This document shows, one piece after another, positions 14,924 through 55,075 of a stretch of DNA of 64,000 nucleotides. A program made the translations under genes and the position numbers. The notes beneath the pieces were generated by a model that saw only the letters and a program-made list of their open reading frames with translations, was not told where the DNA came from and made no database searches. Numbering within the stretch: position 1 is the first letter of the stretch; every line of letters begins with the position of its first letter. The stretch is from Apoderus coryli (Eukaryota > Arthropoda > Insecta > Coleoptera > Attelabidae): positions 3,906,001-3,970,000 of the forward strand of contig OU452201.1 in assembly GCA_911728435.2 (NCBI GenBank). The letters run 5' to 3'.

Positions 14924-15190
14924 GGTTATTGATCTTACGAATGATGGACATTAATTTATAACTCCTGTACGTTAAAACGATGTTACCAGGTTGTTAATGT
15001 TACGAACGATGAAGATTAGTTTATGTCTCCAATACGTAAAACCGATGTTAGCTGGTTATTAATGTTACGAACGATGAACATTAATCTATGACTTTTGTAC
15101 AATAAACCGATGTCTGAAGGTTATTAATGTTACGAACGAGGAACATAAATCTATGACTTTTGTACGTTAAACCAATGTTAGCTGATTATT
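14924..15190 (+). repeat. 65-bp tandem repeat, four diverged units
   Basis: Units start at 14924, 14989, 15054 and 15119, each exactly 65 bp, with a partial fifth at 15184. The core is GGTTATTAATGTTACGAACG, then ATGAACATTAATCTATGACT, then TTTGTACGTTAAACCGATGT. Units differ by about 10-25%. The same GTACGT-AAACC block recurs inverted at the right end of the enclosing element, so the array probably expanded from its subterminal repeats. Confidence 0.85.
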
Positions 15191-15564
15191 ACATTGGGTT
15201 ATAATAATTGTTTTACGTAATTGTGTTCGCCGGAAATTATTATTACGAAAGATTGAGATTATTGTTCTGTATTCAATCAATAATCGCGAGCATATATAGG
15301 TACATATGTATTATGTGTACTGCAAAGTGCAGTATGGTTCAAATATACTAGTACCAATGGTTAGAGAATTTAAAAGCCCAAATAAGACTCAAAATTATCT
15401 TGCTGTACGTCCATTGATTTGATGCACCTGCTTTGTAAATAAATTAAATCATATTTGTACAACACTCGAAATCTAAAGGCTTTATTTTTAATTTAGTTCA
15501 TATTAAATGCTAAACATGTCAGATTCGTCTGTCGTCTGAGGTGAAAAGGGAGAAACTACGCAAG

Positions 15565-17094: not shown

Positions 17095-18866
17095 TACAGG
17101 GTGAACCAAATGTCCACCTCGAATATTGTTGAAGGAAGGAAAAACTCCGGAAGATCACGTCGATTTCCAAGGGACACACTTTTTAAACATTCTGAGGCAT
17201 TTAAACTCACTATTCGTTGACGAAGGTCTTCTACAGTGGCAGGTTTGGTTTTAAATGGCCCCACAAAAAATTTAGTAGTGTTAAATCAGCTGAACTAGAG
17301 GCAGTGTGTTTCTGGCTAACAATGGTTCCAGTTTCTTTCAATTTAGGTCAGAATTTGCAGCCGTAAGCAATTGTTTCTAGAAGTTTGGTTGTGTGTGGCA
17401 CGGAGATACTAATAAAATATAAATAAGAAATGCTCAATCTGCAACATTAAAAAGAATATTCGACCAGTCTATAGTTATAATATAATGATTTGAAACCATG
17501 ATATATAGAGAGATATACAGAATATCCCAAAATGAATCATTCATTAAACAATAAGGAATTTGTGCTGGGACTATTTTTCGATCTGAGTAGAGCTTTTGAC
17601 ACCGTCAATCGTGAACTACTGATGAGAAGGCTGAATGATGTGGGTGTAAGGGGAACGGCGGCCGCCTGGATATCTAGCTATCTACAATCACGCACACAAA
17701 TGGTTGAGGTTGATGGTGCTCGTTCTAGAGTAGCATTCACAAATAAAGGAATACACAGGGATCATGTTTGTCACCCACACTCTTTAACATTTTTATTAAC
17801 GAATTACCGAACAAAATCAAGGAATTCGGAACTGCCGTTCTCTACGCAGACGACAACAGCGCCATAATAACCGGAACAAACAGGAGATAAAGGTCGTGAA
17901 AAAAGCACAGCATGTAGTTGTGAAGATAGCCGATTGGTGTAAGCTGAACGGACTGTCACTTAACGCCTCTAAGACGGTCGCTCTTTCTATTACAGCAAAT
18001 AACAAAAGGCCTGATAAAAGTTTATTAATACGTATGGGCGGCAAATCCGTGAGGCCGGTAGATAACACCAAATTTTTAGGCGTAATCACGGACGAAAGAT
18101 TAACTTGGGGCAACCATATTGACCGCGTCACACAAAAGTTGAGTAGCTGTGTATTTCTCATAAGGAACATCAGGGGCACTGTATCGCGTTCGGTCCTCAG
18201 GGTGCGTTACTTCGGACTGGTGCAGTCGACTATGGCTTACGGTATATGTATTGGGGAGGGGCAGGGGATGCAATTAGGGTCTTTATAAAACAGAAAAAAA
18301 TCATTAGAACAATGACTAAAATAAATCAGAAAACCTCGTGTAAAACTCACTTTAAAATGCTGAACATAATGACCCTCCCTTGCCTATACATGTACGCACT
18401 GATAATAAACATAAAAAAGCTATCAGGATCAATAAAAAAAAAGAGAAAATATACACAATTATGATACGAGAATTAAGGACAGCCTAGAATTGCCATTCTC
18501 CAGACTATCGAAGGGTCAGAAAAACCCGAACTATATAGACATCAAATGTTTTAACAAGATTCTGAGAGTTGGAGGGTTCGCGGACATGAAAATAGATAAG
18601 TTCAAGCTCGAGCTGAAAGACTTTTTTGTTCGTGAATGTTTTTATTCAGTTGACGAATTTTTAAATTATTAATTGTTTGTTTTGTCGCTGTGATACTTGT
18701 AATATGTAACTGTTATACTGTTTGATTTTTATTTTTATTGTTATTTTGACGAGCCGACAATGTAATGTATTACATTCTATGACAAATAAAGAATTTGAAT
18801 TTGAATAACACGTTCACCTCACATATATTATACAGATCGATCTAGTTCCCCCTTGGACACCCTGTA
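17095..18866 (-). mobile_element. Mariner-type deletion derivative containing a LINE insertion
   Basis: Inverted ends TACAGGGTG (17095) and CACCCTGTA (ending 18866) are each flanked by TA. On the minus strand, inside the left end, is transposase C-terminal coding: SADLTLLNFLWGHLK matches the third catalytic motif S-P-D-L-T-P-L-D-F-F-L-W-G, then, one frame off, TKPATVEDLRQRIVS. Directly upstream in the same frame is PKLKETGTIV, which belongs to the N-terminal helix-turn-helix region of such transposases. The middle of the protein is therefore deleted, and the catalytic D has become N. About 1.3 kb of the interval is the LINE at 17505-18806. Confidence 0.55.
17505..18806 (+). pseudogene. Jockey-like LINE, 5'-truncated ORF2 fragment
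   Basis: The frame from 17532 gives FVLGLFFDLSRAFDTVNREL (RT motif with SRAFD), then WISSYLQSRTQMVEVDGARS. A frameshift follows before the NELPNKI-like region; AVLYADDNSAI is in another frame and its YADD catalytic pair is intact. The thumb region WCKLNGLSLNASKTVALSI and TKFLGVITDERLTWGNHI lies in the 17896-18288 frame. The C-terminus ending FFVRECFYSVDEFLNY stops at 18670. The 3' end carries AATAAAG and a GAATTTGAATTTGAA tail. Several frameshifts make it inactive. A second member of the family is at 53.6-54.25 kb. Confidence 0.85.
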
Positions 18867-19682
18867 TAATATATAAACCCAAGTAACAGGTGCCAGAAAT
18901 AGGCAAATTTTAAATTGTCTGCTGTTAGATCCAGTGTTCCTCATATAGATCGTACGAGTTTGTTACTACTTCAGGAGTACCGCAGATGACCTCAAGCTTT
19001 ATTCTGTCGTCAGATCTGTGAGTGGATGTGATGCTTTGAAGTTGGATCTCCACATGTTCTAACTCTCTAGGAACATGTGATAAATTGTGTAAGACCCTAT
19101 ATATTTTTTTCTAATATTATAACCGAAATATTTTTTTTTCCTCATCAACTTCGTGGGAACATACAAAGATTCGATAGCGCGTTATGTTTATATTAAATAA
19201 AAATAATGCAGCCTCAAGAGGTTTGTAAAGTAAACAAATAAATGGTTCTAACGTCTGAGAATCACGTCTTTGTCTATGGGATTCATTTTCAATTTTATTT
19301 CCAAAGAGTTTACAACTATTCGAATATTTTAAATTAATAATTATTAAATTGTGTGTTTGTGAATCTTTTGTGCTCAACCTACCTATTGTCGACGAGGTTC
19401 TATTCTACATCCATAAGGGTGAGTTTCTCACTGAGTAAATTTGTTTTGCATGATTTTCTTTTCGATACATATATTAATCATTATTTATGATTTATTCAAC
19501 ATTTGGCTATTATTGATATTTTAATTTGATATTACAAATTTATCTGAAGGAAGTTAAATTCAAAACAAGTGCATTTTCTATTCTTGATCATATTTACAAT
19601 GATATCGAGTAATTAACAGATTTTTCATGTTTTATTATTTTATTATCATTGACTCATTAATGCCGTAAGAAACATCCGTACA
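18867..19682. other. No gene recognised
   Basis: AT-rich DNA with no transposon end or exon that I can support. The minus-strand reading frame at 19117-19377 shows no recognisable domain. Confidence 0.5.
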
Positions 19683-20125
19683 TTTTGGTCGATTATGGAG
19701 CAGTATCTTGCGTGACTCTGTCCCTGATACATTATAAGCTCCGGACCGTTGAATTATTATTTATTTTTGGTTAGTATCTGGAGCGATATCTTGCGTGACT
19801 CTGCCCCTGATATCATTGCACACTCAGTTCTAACGTTTGGTCAATTATAGAGCAGTATCTTGCGTGACTCTGCCCCTGATACATTATAAGCTCTCGACCG
19901 TTGTATTTTATTGGTTAGTATCTGGAGCGATACCTTGCGTGACTCTGCCCCTGGTATCATTGCACACTCAGTACTAACGTATTCCTAGTATTTGGAGGGT
20001 ACCTTGCGTGACTCTGCCCCTGGTACCATGGCCACTCCGGACTAGTGTTATTTGAATTTTGTGATAACTGTAGCGATACCTTGCGTGACTCTGCCCCTGG
20101 TATCATTGACGCTCAGTATATCAAT
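19683..20125. ncRNA. Array of six stem-loops with invariant 18-nt loop and covarying stems
   Basis: Six hairpins lie at 19687-19747, 19770-19834, 19839-19899, 19914-19978, 19985-20045 and 20063-20122. Each has the loop TTGCGTGACTCTGCCCCT (copy 1 has one C-to-T change). The inner stem changes but always pairs: GTATC/GATAC (copies 1, 3), GATATC/GATATC (2), GATACC/GGTATC (4, 6), GGTACC/GGTACC (5). A middle stem covaries too, GGAGC/GCTCC in copy 1 versus AGAGC/GCTCT in copy 3. Outer stems also pair: GGTC/GACC (1, 3), GTTAG/CTAAC (2, 4), CTAGT/ACTAG (5), ACTG-AGCG/CGCT-CAGT (6). Compensatory change with a fixed loop is the signature of selected RNA structure. The strand is undetermined because stems pair in either direction. 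I do not recognise the motif. There is no open reading frame across it. Confidence 0.6.
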
Positions 20126-20819
20126 GAACGATGTAATACTGGCAATTTTTGATTGATTTTATCTTAATTCTGAATTAAAGTCGTGAAAGACAACATGAAA
20201 TAACAATAAGGAATTAATTAATAATAATGCACATTATAATACAAGATTTTACATACACACATGAGTAGAACAAAATTGCTCAGACTTTCCTTCTGTTTAT
20301 TTACAGATATAGATATACGTCACCTCATCAACCGATTAAAGCTTCGGCCCAGTTACTGGCAAAGTAATTTTACTTTTTATATATATTTCTTTATTTTAAG
20401 TTTTTATTTTATTTTTCTTTATTTCTTTATTATATATATTTATATATTTTTTTTTATCTGAATTTACTGTTTTACTTGAAAAGAATACAAAATAATAGAC
20501 GAAAATAATTAACGCATCCTGACAATTTATTATACTTTAAATTTTCCTACAATTGTCTTGATACCCAGACAATAGTAATTGTATTACAAAAAAACAATAT
20601 ACACATTATAAAAAATGTATAGTGATTGTTTTATATTTATCTTTAGATAACGACAATATGAATATGAGATCATAGTCCAACACTTATTCCTTACAAGTAA
20701 TGGCAGAAAGATTAGAATGTTATCTTTGCTTAATTAAAGATAATTTTCCATTGAATTAATTATATAAACTTACATAAATACATAAGTGCGAAAAAATTGT
20801 ACTCAATGACAATTTTGGT

Positions 20820-21263
20820 GGTGTTCCCCTAAGGTTTGTTTCAAAGGTAGACAAAGGCACCTAAACAGTAAATGATTCATATCCATAGGGCGAAGTGGAC
20901 CTCAGTTTAGCCCAGCCCGATCCCGGGATCGAAATCCTCTGTGGATATTTCCTTCTGGGGCAACTTAAAAACGTTGGTGTATAAGACTTAAAAAACCGCT
21001 TATTTTTTAATGTAAGCTTATATCCGAGCCGTCTAGACTCATGTACAGTGGCTGAAGGTGGCCATTTTCAACAACTAATATGATTTCATTTATTTATTTA
21101 AAATTGTTACAATAATTTGATTAACAAAGCTTACTCGAAAAGTACAAGACCTTAAACTATCACACATTTGTAAATGTTATGAGACAAAAAGTAAAAAAGT
21201 TATGTATATAAAACACATTTTAGAGGTGGCTTTTTCTACCTCAAGCAACCATAGGGGAACACC
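20820..21263. mobile_element. MITE-like element with GGTGTTCCCCTA inverted ends
   Basis: The left end GGTGTTCCCCTAAGGTTTG is matched by the right end, read inward, GGTGTTCCCCTATGGTTGC. The 444-bp interior has no open reading frame and includes a GATCCCGGGATC palindrome near 20922. A target duplication is not obvious, so the superfamily is not assigned. It is a non-autonomous DNA transposon by structure. Confidence 0.6.
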
Positions 21264-21390
21264 AATAAAATATATATTGCACACCCTCTTGATCGCTGAA
21301 AAACAGGAGTTGCTCAATATTTTTGTATATATAAATAACAAACCTTATTATTAAACAAAGAATCACATTTTTCCGAACTTATTTATTTCT

Positions 21391-21490
21391 TGATTCGGTG
21401 GGTCGTGATGCATGGTCAGTCTTAGTTGGTGGAGCGATTTGTCTGCTTCATTCGGATAACGAACGAGACTAACCTAGGCGTATTAAATGA
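21391..21490 (+). pseudogene. 18S (small-subunit) rRNA fragment
   Basis: The segment contains CTTAGTTGGTGGAGCGATTT followed by GTCTG and GATAACGAACGAGACT. This is the highly conserved eukaryotic 18S rRNA stretch (TTAGTTGGTGGAGCGATTTG...TAATTCCGATAACGAACGAGACT) from the 3' half of the molecule. Several substitutions (CTTCATTCGG in place of GTTAATTCCG, and CATGGTCAGT in place of CATGGCCGTT) and the loss of flanking rRNA show it is a dispersed, decayed fragment of about 95 nt and not a functional gene. Confidence 0.85.
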
Positions 21491-22421
21491 CATCTTAAAG
21501 GCCCATCGATTTAGGAGGAGAGAAAATTTACATTACTGACTGCAAGTAAATATAGTAAAATGTTCGTTTAATATTTAAAGATTTTACTTCTGCATTAAGA
21601 TCAGACTTATGCTCCAAAATTATAGGCTATACTGCTATTCTAGTCAAAGTCGTCGGAACGTAGACATAATATTGGGAGGTTTTTCATATATTCTGGAGAA
21701 GTTTTTGCTAATCCCTCCCAAGACAACTTTCATTCGACTTGACGGTCTGAGATCGATCTGCTAGGTACATGGTCCAAAATAAGCTTCTTTTAATATTATT
21801 AATAATTACTATCGAATTCTTGATGGGGCACAGATGTTTTTAATCGTCAATGAACCCCAGAATATCTGAAAAATGTTATGATGAAACTACGGTTATCGTG
21901 TGATCGATTAATATAAATATATAGCGAAAGAAAGAAACTGCCTTATACTTATATTATTACAAAAATGCCCCATATAAAAGAATATATCTAAATATAGTAA
22001 TACATAATAAGACCACATAATGCAGAGCTATACACAATGTCATGTATGGCCGCTTGCAGCCTCGCATCTGCACCAGCAATCAATAATTAAATTACCCCGT
22101 CCCCATGGTCGTTATTATGTGTGTACGCCACAAATTCCATTTACAGTGTGCTTCCACCTACATCATGGCACCTATTTATGAAATATTTTAGTGGTAACAC
22201 ATATTTCACCGTTAAATACAAGGATCAAAATGAAGTTTTTACCGTAACTGTCCTAAGGAACAAACGGGTAAATATATTTCATCAGTTTGCAGTACTAAAT
22301 GCTGACCATGGGCGTTCGTTCAACAAAAACAGAATTTTAATAATAATAATTATTATTATTGTATTATTATCCTTGTTTCCAAAAAACTAACGTAATAACA
22401 AACTAACTACTTTATTCAAAA
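21491..22421. other. No gene recognised
   Basis: AT-rich DNA. The frame at 22121-22390 shows no recognisable domain and ends in an (ATT)n run. No transposon ends found. Confidence 0.4.
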
Positions 22422-24110: not shown

Positions 24111-24376
24111 TAATTACAATGAAACAATTTCGTCGTCTCCACTAATAATTTAAAAAAATCAGCCTTAAAATATCGCAACTATGGTGGAGTTAAATCCGCA
24201 TATAGGCAGAGCCTAATAATAGAGTATTAAGGGCTCTGCCTATATGCAGATTTAACTCCACCATATTTGCGATATTTTAAGGCTGATGATGGAGCTGGGA
24301 CTCCGAAACATCTCCCTTTAAATAAAGATTTTTTAAAATTATTAGTGGAGATGACGAAATTGTTTCATTGTAATTA
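24111..24376. mobile_element. Hairpin element with hammerhead motif in right arm
   Basis: Two inverted arms of about 100 bp share TAATTACAATGAAACAATTT and AGCCTTAAAATATCGCAA, and meet at a short spacer near 24226-24236. The right arm has about 40 extra bases, which contain the hammerhead motif at 24275-24322. The left arm lacks exactly that segment, apparently through a deletion between two GAT triplets. The architecture resembles the larger element at 26.3-27.3 kb. No coding sequence. Confidence 0.7.
24275..24322 (+). ncRNA. Hammerhead ribozyme motif (type I, minimal stem III)
   Basis: Core CTGATGA (24283-24289) and GAAA (24305-24308) are canonical. Stem II is GGAG/CTCC with loop CTGGGA, preceded by one extra T. 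Stem I pairs TTTTAAGG (24275-24282) with CCTTTAAA (24315-24322): four pairs, a U-U mismatch, three pairs. The stem III segment is CATC before the TC cleavage dinucleotide, where other copies have CATG, so stem III is weaker. Cleavage would fall after C24314. Stem I bases differ from the other loci yet pair, which supports real homologous structure. Confidence 0.65.
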
Positions 24377-29720: not shown

Positions 29721-30158
29721 TTGCAATAAATCAGGAAGTCTAAAAATATATAGCTTAGAAATTGTTTACCAATTAATATGTATGTTTGGTTGAGACAGTA
29801 ATAATTATTGAACTGGTTTCTTGCACTGTTAAAAATAAAAATAATGACATTTTGTATTTTTTTCAATCATGTATTAAATAAAATAAAACATGAAAAAATC
29901 AGTCGTGATAGTCTAATAAATCGGTGTTCTGCTTGAATATTGCAATAAATCAGGAAGTCTAAAAATATATAGCTTAGAAATTGTTTACCAATTAATATGT
30001 ATGTTTGGTTGAGACAGTAATAATTATTGAACTGGTTTCTTGCACTGTTAAAAATAAAAATAATGACATTTTGTATTTTTTTCAATCATGTATTAAATAA
30101 AATAAAACATGAAAAAATCAGTCGTGATAGTCTAATAAATCGGTGTTCTGCTTGAATA
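29721..30158. repeat. Perfect 219-bp tandem duplication
   Basis: 29721-29939 and 29940-30158 are identical as far as I can compare by eye, from TTGCAATAAATCAGG to GTTCTGCTTGAATA. There are only two units and no divergence, so the duplication is very recent, polymorphic, or an assembly artefact. The unit has no coding sequence. Confidence 0.9.
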
Positions 30159-38294: not shown

Positions 38295-39437
38295 CAGTAA
38301 ACACATATACGTAAATTAAACGTGTCAGTCGTTGATAATTGGTCTTACGTTAGAAAAGTGACGGTTTATTTTAAGTTTAATTTTACACCGTTCAGTTTAA
38401 ACGTTATAAACATGTGTTTTTATTATCTAAATACAACTACGTGCATTAATTATGTTTAATTAACGTTGTATATGTATTATAAAAAAACCATAAAATACAA
38501 ACTTTTGTTTTAGGTGTTTTTTAAACGCGTCTCAAACATTGTCAAAATTAAAAACGTTTATAAAACGTTCTTTATGTAATTTATAATAATCCGGTATTTA
38601 TAGCTAAAATAACGTTAGAAAATGTTCATTAGAAGCGCATAATTTTTAGAGGCGACAATAAAAACGTTAAAATGACGTTTTTTAAGTATTTTATAACAAT
38701 CCGAAAATTACAGTTAAGGTAACGTGTAAAATAAACCAAAAAGTTGGATTGTTGGTTGTAAATATGCAAAAAGCCGTTTGTTTTTTTTTTTGTGTTATTC
38801 AATATTTTTATATAAAATATTGTGAAAAAGAAATTACAAAAATTATTCGATACAACGTAAGTTTCGGCAACAGAAAGCGGCATAGTTCGCCGAAACTCGC
38901 ATTATTGTATCGTATAATTTTGTAAGTTATAGTTGACCACAATATTTAATATTAAAAAACACAACAACAAAAAGGGCATTATTTTTTCATCAAACTTTTG
39001 TATCAACTCAACAATGGAAATCTGGTAGTTTTATTGATTTATTCCATACATTTTATCAACGTATATTTCACGTTACAAAAATATATAAAAGCAACTTTAA
39101 ATAACGTGAAATCAATCGTTATTTACATGTCTCTAAAATGCGTAATTAATATGATTACACAAACGTTTTTTTAAAGCTAATACTTAACGTTTGTGTAATC
39201 GTATTATTAACGTATTTTAGAAACGTATAAATAACGTTTAATTTCACAGTTTAATATATATACATAAATACGTTCAATACACGTTTCTTTAAAGCATTTA
39301 ACCAACGTTTCGTTATTCGTGTTCTGTAACGTAAAAAAGTGCGACATATCAAAGTCAAATGTAAGTATCTAATGTACCTTTTTCTGGAAAGGTGTTTTGT
39401 AGTGATAAACGTTAAATAAACGTATGTGTGTTTACTG
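38295..39437. mobile_element. Fold-back type DNA transposon with CAGTAAACACA ends
   Basis: Inverted ends CAGTAAACACATATACGT (left) and CAGTAAACACACATACGT (right, read inward). The inside is full of AACGTT-type blocks. Two diverged direct copies of a segment of about 110 bp contain TTTATAATAATCCG and TTTATAACAATCCG. There are two internal hairpins: one around GTTTCGGC/GCCGAAAC at about 38830-38930, and one at 39109-39237 whose arms share ACACAAACGTT/AACGTTTGTGT. There is no coding sequence. No target duplication seen, so the superfamily is unassigned. Confidence 0.6.
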
Positions 39438-54863: not shown

Positions 54864-55075
54864 GGTAAGTTTATATGAAAAGACAACGCATTGGCGTTAC
54901 TATCTTGTATAAATTTCATTGTATCGTCTTTTTTATTAATTATTATTCTACGTTTGAAAATTTCAATTCAAAACAAAAAAGACTATACCTACAATGAAAT
55001 TTATACAAGACAGTAACGCCAATGGGTTGTCTTTTCATCAAAAATATTGCAATTATTGTAATAAACTTACCCTTA
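54864..55075. repeat. Inverted repeat (hairpin), about 70-bp arms
   Basis: The left arm GGTAAGTTTATATGAAAAGA followed by CATTGGCGTTACTATCTTGT is mirrored by the right arm (read inward) GGTAAGTTTAT, then AAAAGACAACCCATTGGCGT. The right arm has a 25-bp insertion. The centre near 54940-54975 is AT-rich. The arms contain the GTAAGT donor-like sequence at both outer ends. Confidence 0.75.

What the first reader, a model, noticed from the sequence alone, without database searches (positions are those of the whole stretch)
19683..20125. Six tandem stem-loops with a fixed 18-nt loop and compensatory stem changes
Six copies of TTGCGTGACTCTGCCCCT are each closed by a different but perfectly pairing stem. 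Two inner base pairs vary independently in all four combinations: T-A or C-G at the second pair, G-C or A-T at the fifth. A middle stem also covaries (GGAGC/GCTCC and AGAGC/GCTCT), and each copy has its own outer pairing stem (GGTC/GACC, GTTAG/CTAAC, CTAGT/ACTAG, ACTG-AGCG/CGCT-CAGT). Drift in a DNA satellite would not keep pairing while changing both sides. This points to a structured RNA, perhaps a polycistronic small RNA precursor or a repeated protein-binding RNA. I know of no described family with this loop.
Basis: seen in the sequence. Interest (0 to 1): 0.93.

Follow-up and report, generated by a model that had tools for sequence, protein, structure and literature searches.

The report
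Hairpin array in a retrotransposon LTR
The six hairpins are real and look like a selected RNA structure, but they belong to the long terminal repeat of a dispersed Ty3/gypsy-type retrotransposon, probably as a docking platform on the element's own RNA.

Summary
Observation confirmed: six hairpins, five with the exact 18-nt loop and one with one change. In arm-swap tests the own arms pair best in two other copies (rank 1 of 720) and rank 4 of 720 in the window; compensatory changes exceed a null (P 0.0015). Folding energy alone is not unusual.

The array is no locus of its own. It lies in a 1464-bp solo LTR (19088-20551, TG...CA, target duplication ATTG) of a Ty3/gypsy retrotransposon. The exact loop occurs 104 times in the 428-Mb genome, at 27 loci; one element has two such LTRs flanking RT-RNaseH-integrase.

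The array sits between donor-like and acceptor-like splice sites. A sister family (RT 75% identical) shares the donor block and a block after the acceptor, and has three other hairpins with a common tip, TGCGGTCA, in the same slot. Between two subfamilies of ours all six loops change (18 or 17 nt) while stems hardly do; mixed copies exist.

Best reading: a multivalent RNA docking platform on the element's unspliced RNA, for export or packaging. Function untested. Structured RNA: supported; free-standing small-RNA precursor: not supported. New variant of a known kind.

The parts
19084..19087 (.). 4-bp target site duplication ATTG (left)
19088..20551 (+). Solo LTR, 1464 bp, TGTAAGACCC...TTTTCCTACA, of a Ty3/gypsy retrotransposon
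   Evidence: 95.9-97.1% over the full length in 11 other copies with sharp ends; ends and TSDs; same LTR flanks RT-RNaseH-integrase in L033/L034
19417..19438 (+). Splice-donor-like block GGGTGAGTTTCTCACTGAGTAA (putative intron starts 19419); itself a small hairpin GTGAG-TTT-CTCAC
   Evidence: matches the sister-family LTR; GTGAGT in 21 of 21 aligned LTR rows, the whole block in 19 of 21 (L026 one change, L031 deletion)
19687..19747 (+). Hairpin 1 (type A), loop 19708-19725 with one change
19770..19834 (+). Hairpin 2 (type B), loop 19791-19808
19839..19899 (+). Hairpin 3 (type A), loop 19860-19877
19914..19978 (+). Hairpin 4 (type B), loop 19935-19952
19985..20045 (+). Hairpin 5, loop 20004-20021
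20062..20123 (+). Hairpin 6, loop 20081-20098
20286..20306 (+). Splice-acceptor-like tract TTTCCTTCTGTTTATTTACAG (putative intron end 20306)
   Evidence: TTTACAG in 21 of 21 aligned rows; sister LTR has TTTTCATTTCAG in the corresponding slot in 2 of 2 copies looked at; no RNA data
20335..20340 (+). ATTAAA, possible poly(A) signal before a T-rich stretch (inference only; one of several A-rich hexamers in the LTR)
20552..20555 (.). 4-bp target site duplication ATTG (right)

Best explanation
The array is a cis-acting structured RNA module of a Ty3/gypsy retrotransposon. Shown: it is part of the LTR, pairing of the arms has been kept through double changes, and the loop is fixed among six diverged hairpins. 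Follows from how LTR elements are transcribed (general knowledge): an LTR segment is in the element's full-length RNA at one or both ends. Inferred: six copies of one large unpaired loop form a multivalent docking surface for a trans-acting RNA-binding factor (the element's Gag, or a host export or splicing factor). Inferred from the donor-like and acceptor-like sites on either side: the array is removed by splicing, so it marks only unspliced RNA as the one to be exported or packaged; this fits the LTRs keeping the intron. Inferred: the loops evolve together because they face one partner.
For: LTR anatomy and TSDs; polymerase domains beside it in the order RT, RNase H, integrase, on the same strand. 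In the majority string of the 18-nt subfamily 0 of 18 loop columns vary among the six hairpins against 49 of 63 arm and flank columns, p 1e-9. Compensatory changes. Among the pairs that are not Watson-Crick in the two majority strings, G-T occurs at three positions and A-C at none, which points to the + strand RNA, the strand of pol; A-A, A-G and T-C also occur (few events). All six loops differ between two subfamilies, each by one base of length, while stems hardly change: loop 14 of 108 columns against 15 of 346 outside, p 0.003; indel columns 6 of 108 against 1 of 346, p 0.0009 (13 and 6 rows). In the sister family (RT 75%) two of five LTR segments tested match ours: the donor block (local score 45, null maximum 33, 0 of 300) and a block downstream of the acceptor (35 against 33, 0 of 300). 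In the same slot it carries three hairpins with the tip TGCGGTCA, in a segment, picked after seeing them, that folds at z -3.64.
Against: Folding energies of our array are ordinary, and the predicted fold of the whole array mixes hairpins 1 to 3. No RNA, protein-binding or splicing data exist here. An exact spliced-junction pattern has 0 matches in the genome, which neither proves nor refutes the intron. In the one copy with its own RT there is no reading frame of 60 codons or more before the RT, so no Gag could be examined. The loop has no Watson-Crick complement of 7 nt or more in that copy, where 232 of 300 shuffled loops do, so pairing within the element is not the partner. In old copies the stretches with the splice-like sites are not clearly better kept than others. 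In seven sister copies the predicted fold had 24 broken cells against 1 double and 24 one-sided standard changes.
Confidence: 0.45

Rival explanations
1. DNA-level array: the 18-bp segment is a binding site, in six copies, for a sequence-specific DNA-binding protein (host zinc-finger repressor, insulator or enhancer factor); one-base length changes in every copy are escape or partner change; the palindromic flanks are secondary.
For: Six direct copies 69-83 bp apart; loop-centred change at all six sites. Tandem protein sites in gypsy-type elements are known (gypsy insulator, recalled). The segment contains GCGTG and TGACTC, both recalled as transcription-factor cores.
Against: Does not explain paired arms kept through double changes, G-T but not A-C among tolerated pairs, or the stably folding hairpins in the same slot of the sister LTR.
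Confidence: 0.17
2. Splicing control: the hairpins hold the intron in, or hide or present splice sites, to set the ratio of unspliced to spliced RNA; no export or packaging role.
For: Position between donor-like and acceptor-like sites; the shared donor block is itself a small hairpin.
Against: Splicing itself is not shown; a fixed 17-18-nt loop in six copies is more than steric masking needs.
Confidence: 0.17
3. Mutational artefact: arms stay paired because hairpin-templated (quasi-palindrome) repair or reverse-transcriptase template switching copies one arm from the other; no selection on structure.
For: Template switching or unequal recombination does occur here: some copies join the 5' arm of one hairpin to the 3' arm of the next with the break inside the loop (L009, L023, L031).
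Against: It would not conserve the loop: 0 of 18 loop columns vary among the six hairpins against 49 of 63 in arms and flanks. Templated repair gives perfect pairs, whereas G-T states are seen at three positions. A different hairpin set fills the same slot in the sister family.
Confidence: 0.12
4. Hairpin substrate for small RNAs (miRNA, hpRNA or siRNA precursor).
For: Tandem hairpins in a repeat that is probably transcribed.
Against: Longest uninterrupted helix in the pair list is 7 bp; arms vary and the loop is fixed; no Rfam match at gathering level.
Confidence: 0.04

Closest known systems
Rec response element (RcRE) of HERV-K HML-2, and the CTE that replaced it in SERV-K/MER11 (PMC11379458; abstract and passages seen)
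   Same: RcRE is a 433-nt structured RNA inside the LTR that binds a trans factor for export of unspliced RNA; our array is about 435 nt inside an LTR. There too the export element was replaced in a related lineage.
   Different: RcRE is in U3 of a primate retrovirus; ours is in a Ty3/gypsy LTR, made of six near-equal hairpins with one loop, apparently in an LTR intron; a Rec-like protein was not looked for; export untested.
Constitutive transport element of Mason-Pfizer monkey virus (named in PMC11379458, passages; its build is recalled)
   Same: Repeated equal unpaired motifs offered by stems to one export factor (recalled).
   Different: Two internal-loop sites there, six terminal loops here (recalled); no sequence comparison made.
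Retroviral packaging signals, e.g. of MMTV and HIV-1 (PMC8096270, PMC7599994: search listing with the start of the abstract; details recalled)
   Same: Series of hairpins at or after the splice donor, so that unspliced RNA carries them (recalled).
   Different: Not six copies of one loop; ours would be inside the LTR.
Helenus, Ajax and Cassandra: LTRs holding small-RNA gene sequence (PMC10886601, abstract and outline)
   Same: Structured RNA-like sequence inside an LTR; 4-bp TSD in animal Helenus.
   Different: Those are tRNA- or 5S-derived; the window has no tRNA by ARAGORN and no Rfam match at gathering level.

Membership tests
LTR of a Ty3/gypsy retrotransposon | TG...CA ends and a short constant target duplication | tested here: met
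   20 copies with both ends found (window and 19 of the 26 regions; the others lacked an end or belong to the L033/L034 element): exact 4-bp TSD in 16, after an extra GTATA in 2, absent in 2
LTR of a Ty3/gypsy retrotransposon | Same sequence in direct orientation on both sides of RT, RNase H, integrase | tested here: met
   L033/L034, one element, AAAA on both outer sides
LTR of a Ty3/gypsy retrotransposon | tRNA primer binding site after the 5' LTR | tested here: inconclusive
   ATCAGAAGTGGGAT stands near the LTR end; likeness to a tRNA-Leu 3' end is recalled, and the first bases deviate
LTR of a Ty3/gypsy retrotransposon | gag | tested here: inconclusive
   No frame of 60 codons or more before the RT in the one copy with its own RT; no gag search was run; looks like a deletion derivative
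Export element (RcRE or CTE kind) | Promotes export of intron-containing RNA | not testable with these tools
   needs expression
Export element (RcRE or CTE kind) | Conserved RNA structure within the element's RNA | tested here: met
   energies ordinary
Retroviral packaging signal | Bound by Gag and needed for packaging | not testable with these tools
   no gag in hand
Retroviral packaging signal | Present on unspliced RNA only | tested here: inconclusive
   Donor-like and acceptor-like sites flank the array; no RNA reads; 0 exact junctions in the genome
miRNA cluster | Conserved arms of about 22 paired bases, variable loop | tested here: not met
   Loop 0 of 18 columns variable, arms and flanks 49 of 63; longest helix 7 bp
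Satellite DNA | Long head-to-tail arrays of open-ended copy number | tested here: not met
   Six hairpins with spacings 83, 69, 75, 69, 77 in the window and in 9 other LTRs (L012, L015, L018-L020, L022, L028, both LTRs of L033/L034), dispersed over contigs
Known Rfam family | Score at the family's gathering level | tested here: not met
   0 matches in the window; 2 matches, E 2.7 and 2.9, in 19400-20400

The most novel reading that the evidence does not exclude
A clade of Ty3/gypsy elements carries, inside an intron within the LTR, an exchangeable hairpin array: several stems of free sequence, one family-specific tip. In one family the loop changes in concert across all six hairpins (all 18 nt or all 17 nt in two subfamilies), and between sister families it is another one (a large loop UUGCGUGACUCUGCCCCU six times; a small tip UGCGGUCA, predicted loop CGGU, three times), as expected of a modular, fast-evolving address label that tells unspliced element RNA from spliced and host RNA and tracks a changing trans-acting partner.
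Probability: 0.33. Interest if true: 0.78.

Novelty: new variant of a known kind. Interest (0 to 1): 0.6.

Why it matters
Export and packaging signals are known in detail mainly for vertebrate retroviruses and yeast Ty elements (recalled). A countable, repeated, natural array with matched variants (six loops of 17 or 18 nt; two families with different tips in the same slot) in tens of closely similar LTRs is a ready-made system for finding the trans-acting partner and for testing whether loops and partner co-evolve.

Tried and rejected
Rfam families: none at gathering level. tRNA-like LTR (Helenus kind): no tRNA by ARAGORN in the window. Transposon inverted repeats around the array: among 21 pairs in 18800-21800 none has its arms at the borders; the borders came from comparing copies. 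Loop pairing with another part of the element: no Watson-Crick complement of 7 nt or more. Prokaryotic or viral origin: exact loop 0 in the GTDB and IMG/VR collections. A degenerate loop pattern hit 58 IMG/VR loci; the hairpin model gave 48 matches at E up to 1 there, 38 of them without the full stem, the 3 alignments shown lacking it too; the two contigs with two pattern matches each (L075, L093) were judged from L075, a tandem duplication of G+C-rich sequence: taken as chance. A fold-stability argument failed. The tool count used 17 inner hairpins that I picked by hand from the 45 and left out rows with broken stems (L030 h2 and h5 among them); it gave 0 of 500 shuffles for cells paired, double-change cells and covariation score, but 316 and 480 of 500 for pairs with double change and pair types. 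Redone on all 45 rows: 249 of 270 cells paired, 40 double, 0 of 500; on 18 distinct inner arms 93 of 108 and 11, 0 and 1 of 500. Direction of the loop change: I first took 18 nt as ancestral. Old copies L102-L105 have 17-nt loops wherever a whole loop is kept, and mixed copies exist (L106 1 of 6, L029 5 of 6, L013 and L016 5 of 6, L026 3 of 5 at 18 nt), so it is open (support values were low at these nodes and not shown). Spliced copies: 0 exact. Literature: searches, seen as listings; none listed a description of this array or loop. Passages only were read of PMC8786324, PMC11379458, PMC3601003, PMC4974528, PMC3184123; abstract and outline of PMC10886601. PMC8786324 and PMC3184123 were judged unrelated in structure.

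Full report
OBSERVATION. The six loops lie at 19708, 19791, 19860, 19935, 20004 and 20081 on the + strand. Five are exact; the first has one change. The hairpins form three A-B pairs: period 144, three copies, with spacings 83, 69, 75, 69, 77.

IS THE PAIRING SELECTED? Arms were swapped among the six hairpins and refolded with the loop kept unpaired. The true matching ranks 1 of 720 in L018 and L035 and 4 of 720 in the window copy (three copies tested). On all 45 hairpins tabulated (11 copies, decayed old ones included), 249 of 270 inner-stem cells pair and 40 carry double changes, reached by 0 of 500 shuffles; on 18 distinct inner arms, 93 of 108 and 11, reached by 0 and 1 of 500. Shuffles do not correct for relatedness. 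Over two paralogous and six subfamily comparisons there were 2 double compensatory changes (0.064 expected, P 0.0015), 3 one-sided changes that keep a standard pair, and 1 broken pair (6.6 expected, P 0.0012). With one further pair, included after seeing the second subfamily, 3 doubles against 0.07, 0 of 50000 runs. The pair list was drawn up on these sequences, so the changes, not the 98 of 101 standard pairs, are the test. Folding energies are ordinary: the six hairpins z -0.87, -0.06, -0.85, -1.61, -0.24, -2.54, the whole array +1.03 on + and -1.18 on -. Among pairs that are not Watson-Crick in the two majority strings, G-T occurs at three positions and A-C at none; A-A, A-G and T-C also occur. 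That favours the + strand as the RNA, on few events.

WHAT IT SITS IN. The exact loop occurs 104 times in the host genome (43 forward, 61 reverse; reversed control 0), at 27 loci by my count of the 100 places listed. All five spacings are exact in the window and in 9 other LTRs. Window positions 19088-20551 align over their full length at 95.9-97.1% with 11 other copies and stop sharply there. The ends are TGTAAGACCC and TTTTCCTACA. Of 20 copies with both ends found (window and 19 of 26 fetched regions), 16 have an exact 4-bp duplication, 2 have it after an extra GTATA, 2 lack it. The window copy has ATTG on both sides. In L033/L034 the same sequence stands in direct orientation on both sides of a 2877-bp region with RVT_1, RNase H, Integrase_H2C2 and rve domains, and AAAA on both outer sides. 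So the window segment is a solo LTR of a Ty3/gypsy element. A genome search with that RT scored 104 matches of 1964 candidates: itself at 100%, one relative at 75%, the rest at 54% or less. Of 21 RT relatives with an organism name among the 120 listed (of 1001), 16 are from insects and 5 from spiders, so the host is probably an insect; this is inference.

LTR ANATOMY. The LTR holds one donor-like site GGTGAGT (intron start 19419), and an acceptor-like tract ending TTTACAG at 20306. The array lies between them. GTGAGT is present in 21 of 21 aligned rows, the 22-base block around it in 19 of 21, and TTTACAG in 21 of 21; but in old copies these stretches are not clearly better kept than others. 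The donor block GTGAG-TTT-CTCAC is itself a small hairpin. ATTAAA at 20335 before a T-rich stretch may be a poly(A) signal. Start site, R borders and splicing are not shown. Whatever the borders, an LTR segment is in the element's RNA: U3 at the 3' end, U5 at the 5' end, R at both (general knowledge).

SISTER FAMILY. L108 is the 3' part of the 75% relative. Its LTR begins TGTAAGAACG after nearly the same internal end, GCAGGATGGCCGAC (ours GCAGGATGGCCGAAC). Of five LTR segments tested, two match: the donor block (score 45, null mean 22.8, maximum 33, 0 of 300) and a block starting about 50 bases after the acceptor (35 against maximum 33, 0 of 300); the 5' end, 3' end and array do not. In BLAST only the donor block is clear (E 6e-6; next 0.011). 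Between its donor (L108:583) and acceptor-like TTTTCATTTCAG (L108:1296) our hairpin model finds nothing (best E 0.15 in the locus). Instead there are three hairpins with the tip TGCGGTCA at 907, 994 and 1058; the predicted loop is only CGGT, so they are not of the same size as ours. The segment 780-1110, chosen after seeing them, folds at z -3.64, 0 of 100 shuffles as good. A second copy in L021 has the same layout. Forty copies scored (of 58 candidates) match at 89-100%, two of them identical over the query and 5430 bp apart. In seven copies aligned, one pair of hairpin 2 is seen as T-A, T-G and C-G; over the whole predicted fold there was 1 double change, 24 one-sided standard changes and 24 broken cells, and 53 of 226 paired against 32 of 105 unpaired columns vary, so this test is weak.

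LOOPS CHANGE TOGETHER. Thirteen LTR rows (window and 12 others; two are the LTRs of one element) have 18-nt loops; in L013 and L016 hairpin 6 has 17 nt. Six copies (L035, L037-L040, L043) have 17-nt loops at all six hairpins with nearly the same stems. Between the two majority strings 14 of 108 loop columns differ against 15 of 346 outside (p 0.003); of the indel columns 6 fall in loops, one per hairpin, and 1 outside (p 0.0009). A 17-nt pattern has 62 matches in the genome (control 0), old copies included. Old copies L102-L105 have 17-nt loops wherever a whole loop is kept; L106, L029, L026, L013 and L016 are mixed. So two young subfamilies each have one loop length at nearly all hairpins, mixed copies exist, and the direction is open. 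Recombination between LTR lineages, whose stems are alike position by position, can make mixtures; it does not explain how all six loops came to agree in one lineage. In the majority string of the 18-nt lineage 0 of 18 loop columns vary among the six hairpins, against 49 of 63 in arms and flanks (p 1e-9).

INTERPRETATION. A fixed large loop offered six times by free but pairing stems, in an LTR, in a slot where a related family offers another fixed tip three times, fits a multivalent docking platform for a trans-acting factor on the element's RNA. The flanking splice-like sites suggest that it marks unspliced RNA, like the export elements and packaging signals of retroviruses. The nearest printed parallel seen here is the RcRE, a 433-nt structured element in the LTR of HML-2, replaced by another export element in a related lineage (PMC11379458, abstract and passages). 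Which process is served is not shown.

NOVELTY. No Rfam family reaches its gathering score; the loop is in none of the held papers, and the topic searches listed no description of such an array. I rate it a new variant of a known kind: cis-acting RNA structures of retroelements.

Mended: the pair count is now given for all 45 hairpins beside the hand-picked 17; GTGAGT is in 21, not 20, of 21 rows; the sister's tip is a small loop; gag is rated inconclusive.

Noticed in passing
L108:580-1310 (G000:C7:22759150-22761650): Sister Ty3/gypsy family with three hairpins of tip TGCGGTCA in the LTR slot where ours has six; segment 780-1110 folds at z -3.64.
   Followed up: partly
window 19417-19438 and L108:583-605: The shared donor block is itself a hairpin (GTGAG, TTT or TTTT, CTCAC) that would cover the 5' splice site.
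   Followed up: no
L018 and L020, LTR 3' ends: Two copies carry CCTATA plus GTATA before the target duplication, as if the U5 end reached the primer site without trimming.
   Followed up: no
L009, L023, L031 arrays: Hairpins lost by joining the 5' arm of one hairpin to the 3' arm of the next, with the break inside the loop.
   Followed up: no
L108:1464-1480: Primer-site-like TATCAGAAGTG follows what should be a 3' LTR; possible tandem element or longer LTR.
   Followed up: no
L033:8440-8460: The internal region ends GCAGGATGGCCGAAC, which recalls (from memory) the 5' end of a tRNA-Leu rather than a polypurine tract.
   Followed up: no
window 14924-15191: Second tandem array, 65 bp x 4.1, consensus with a hairpin TTAATGTT-ACGAACGATG-AACATTAA; by eye no compensatory changes.
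   Followed up: partly
window 29721-30158: Head-to-tail duplication of 219 bp at 100%: very recent or an assembly effect.
   Followed up: no
window 24158-24287, 39106-39247, 54875-55038: Long palindromes, 79-91% self-complementary, probably fold-back or MITE copies.
   Followed up: no
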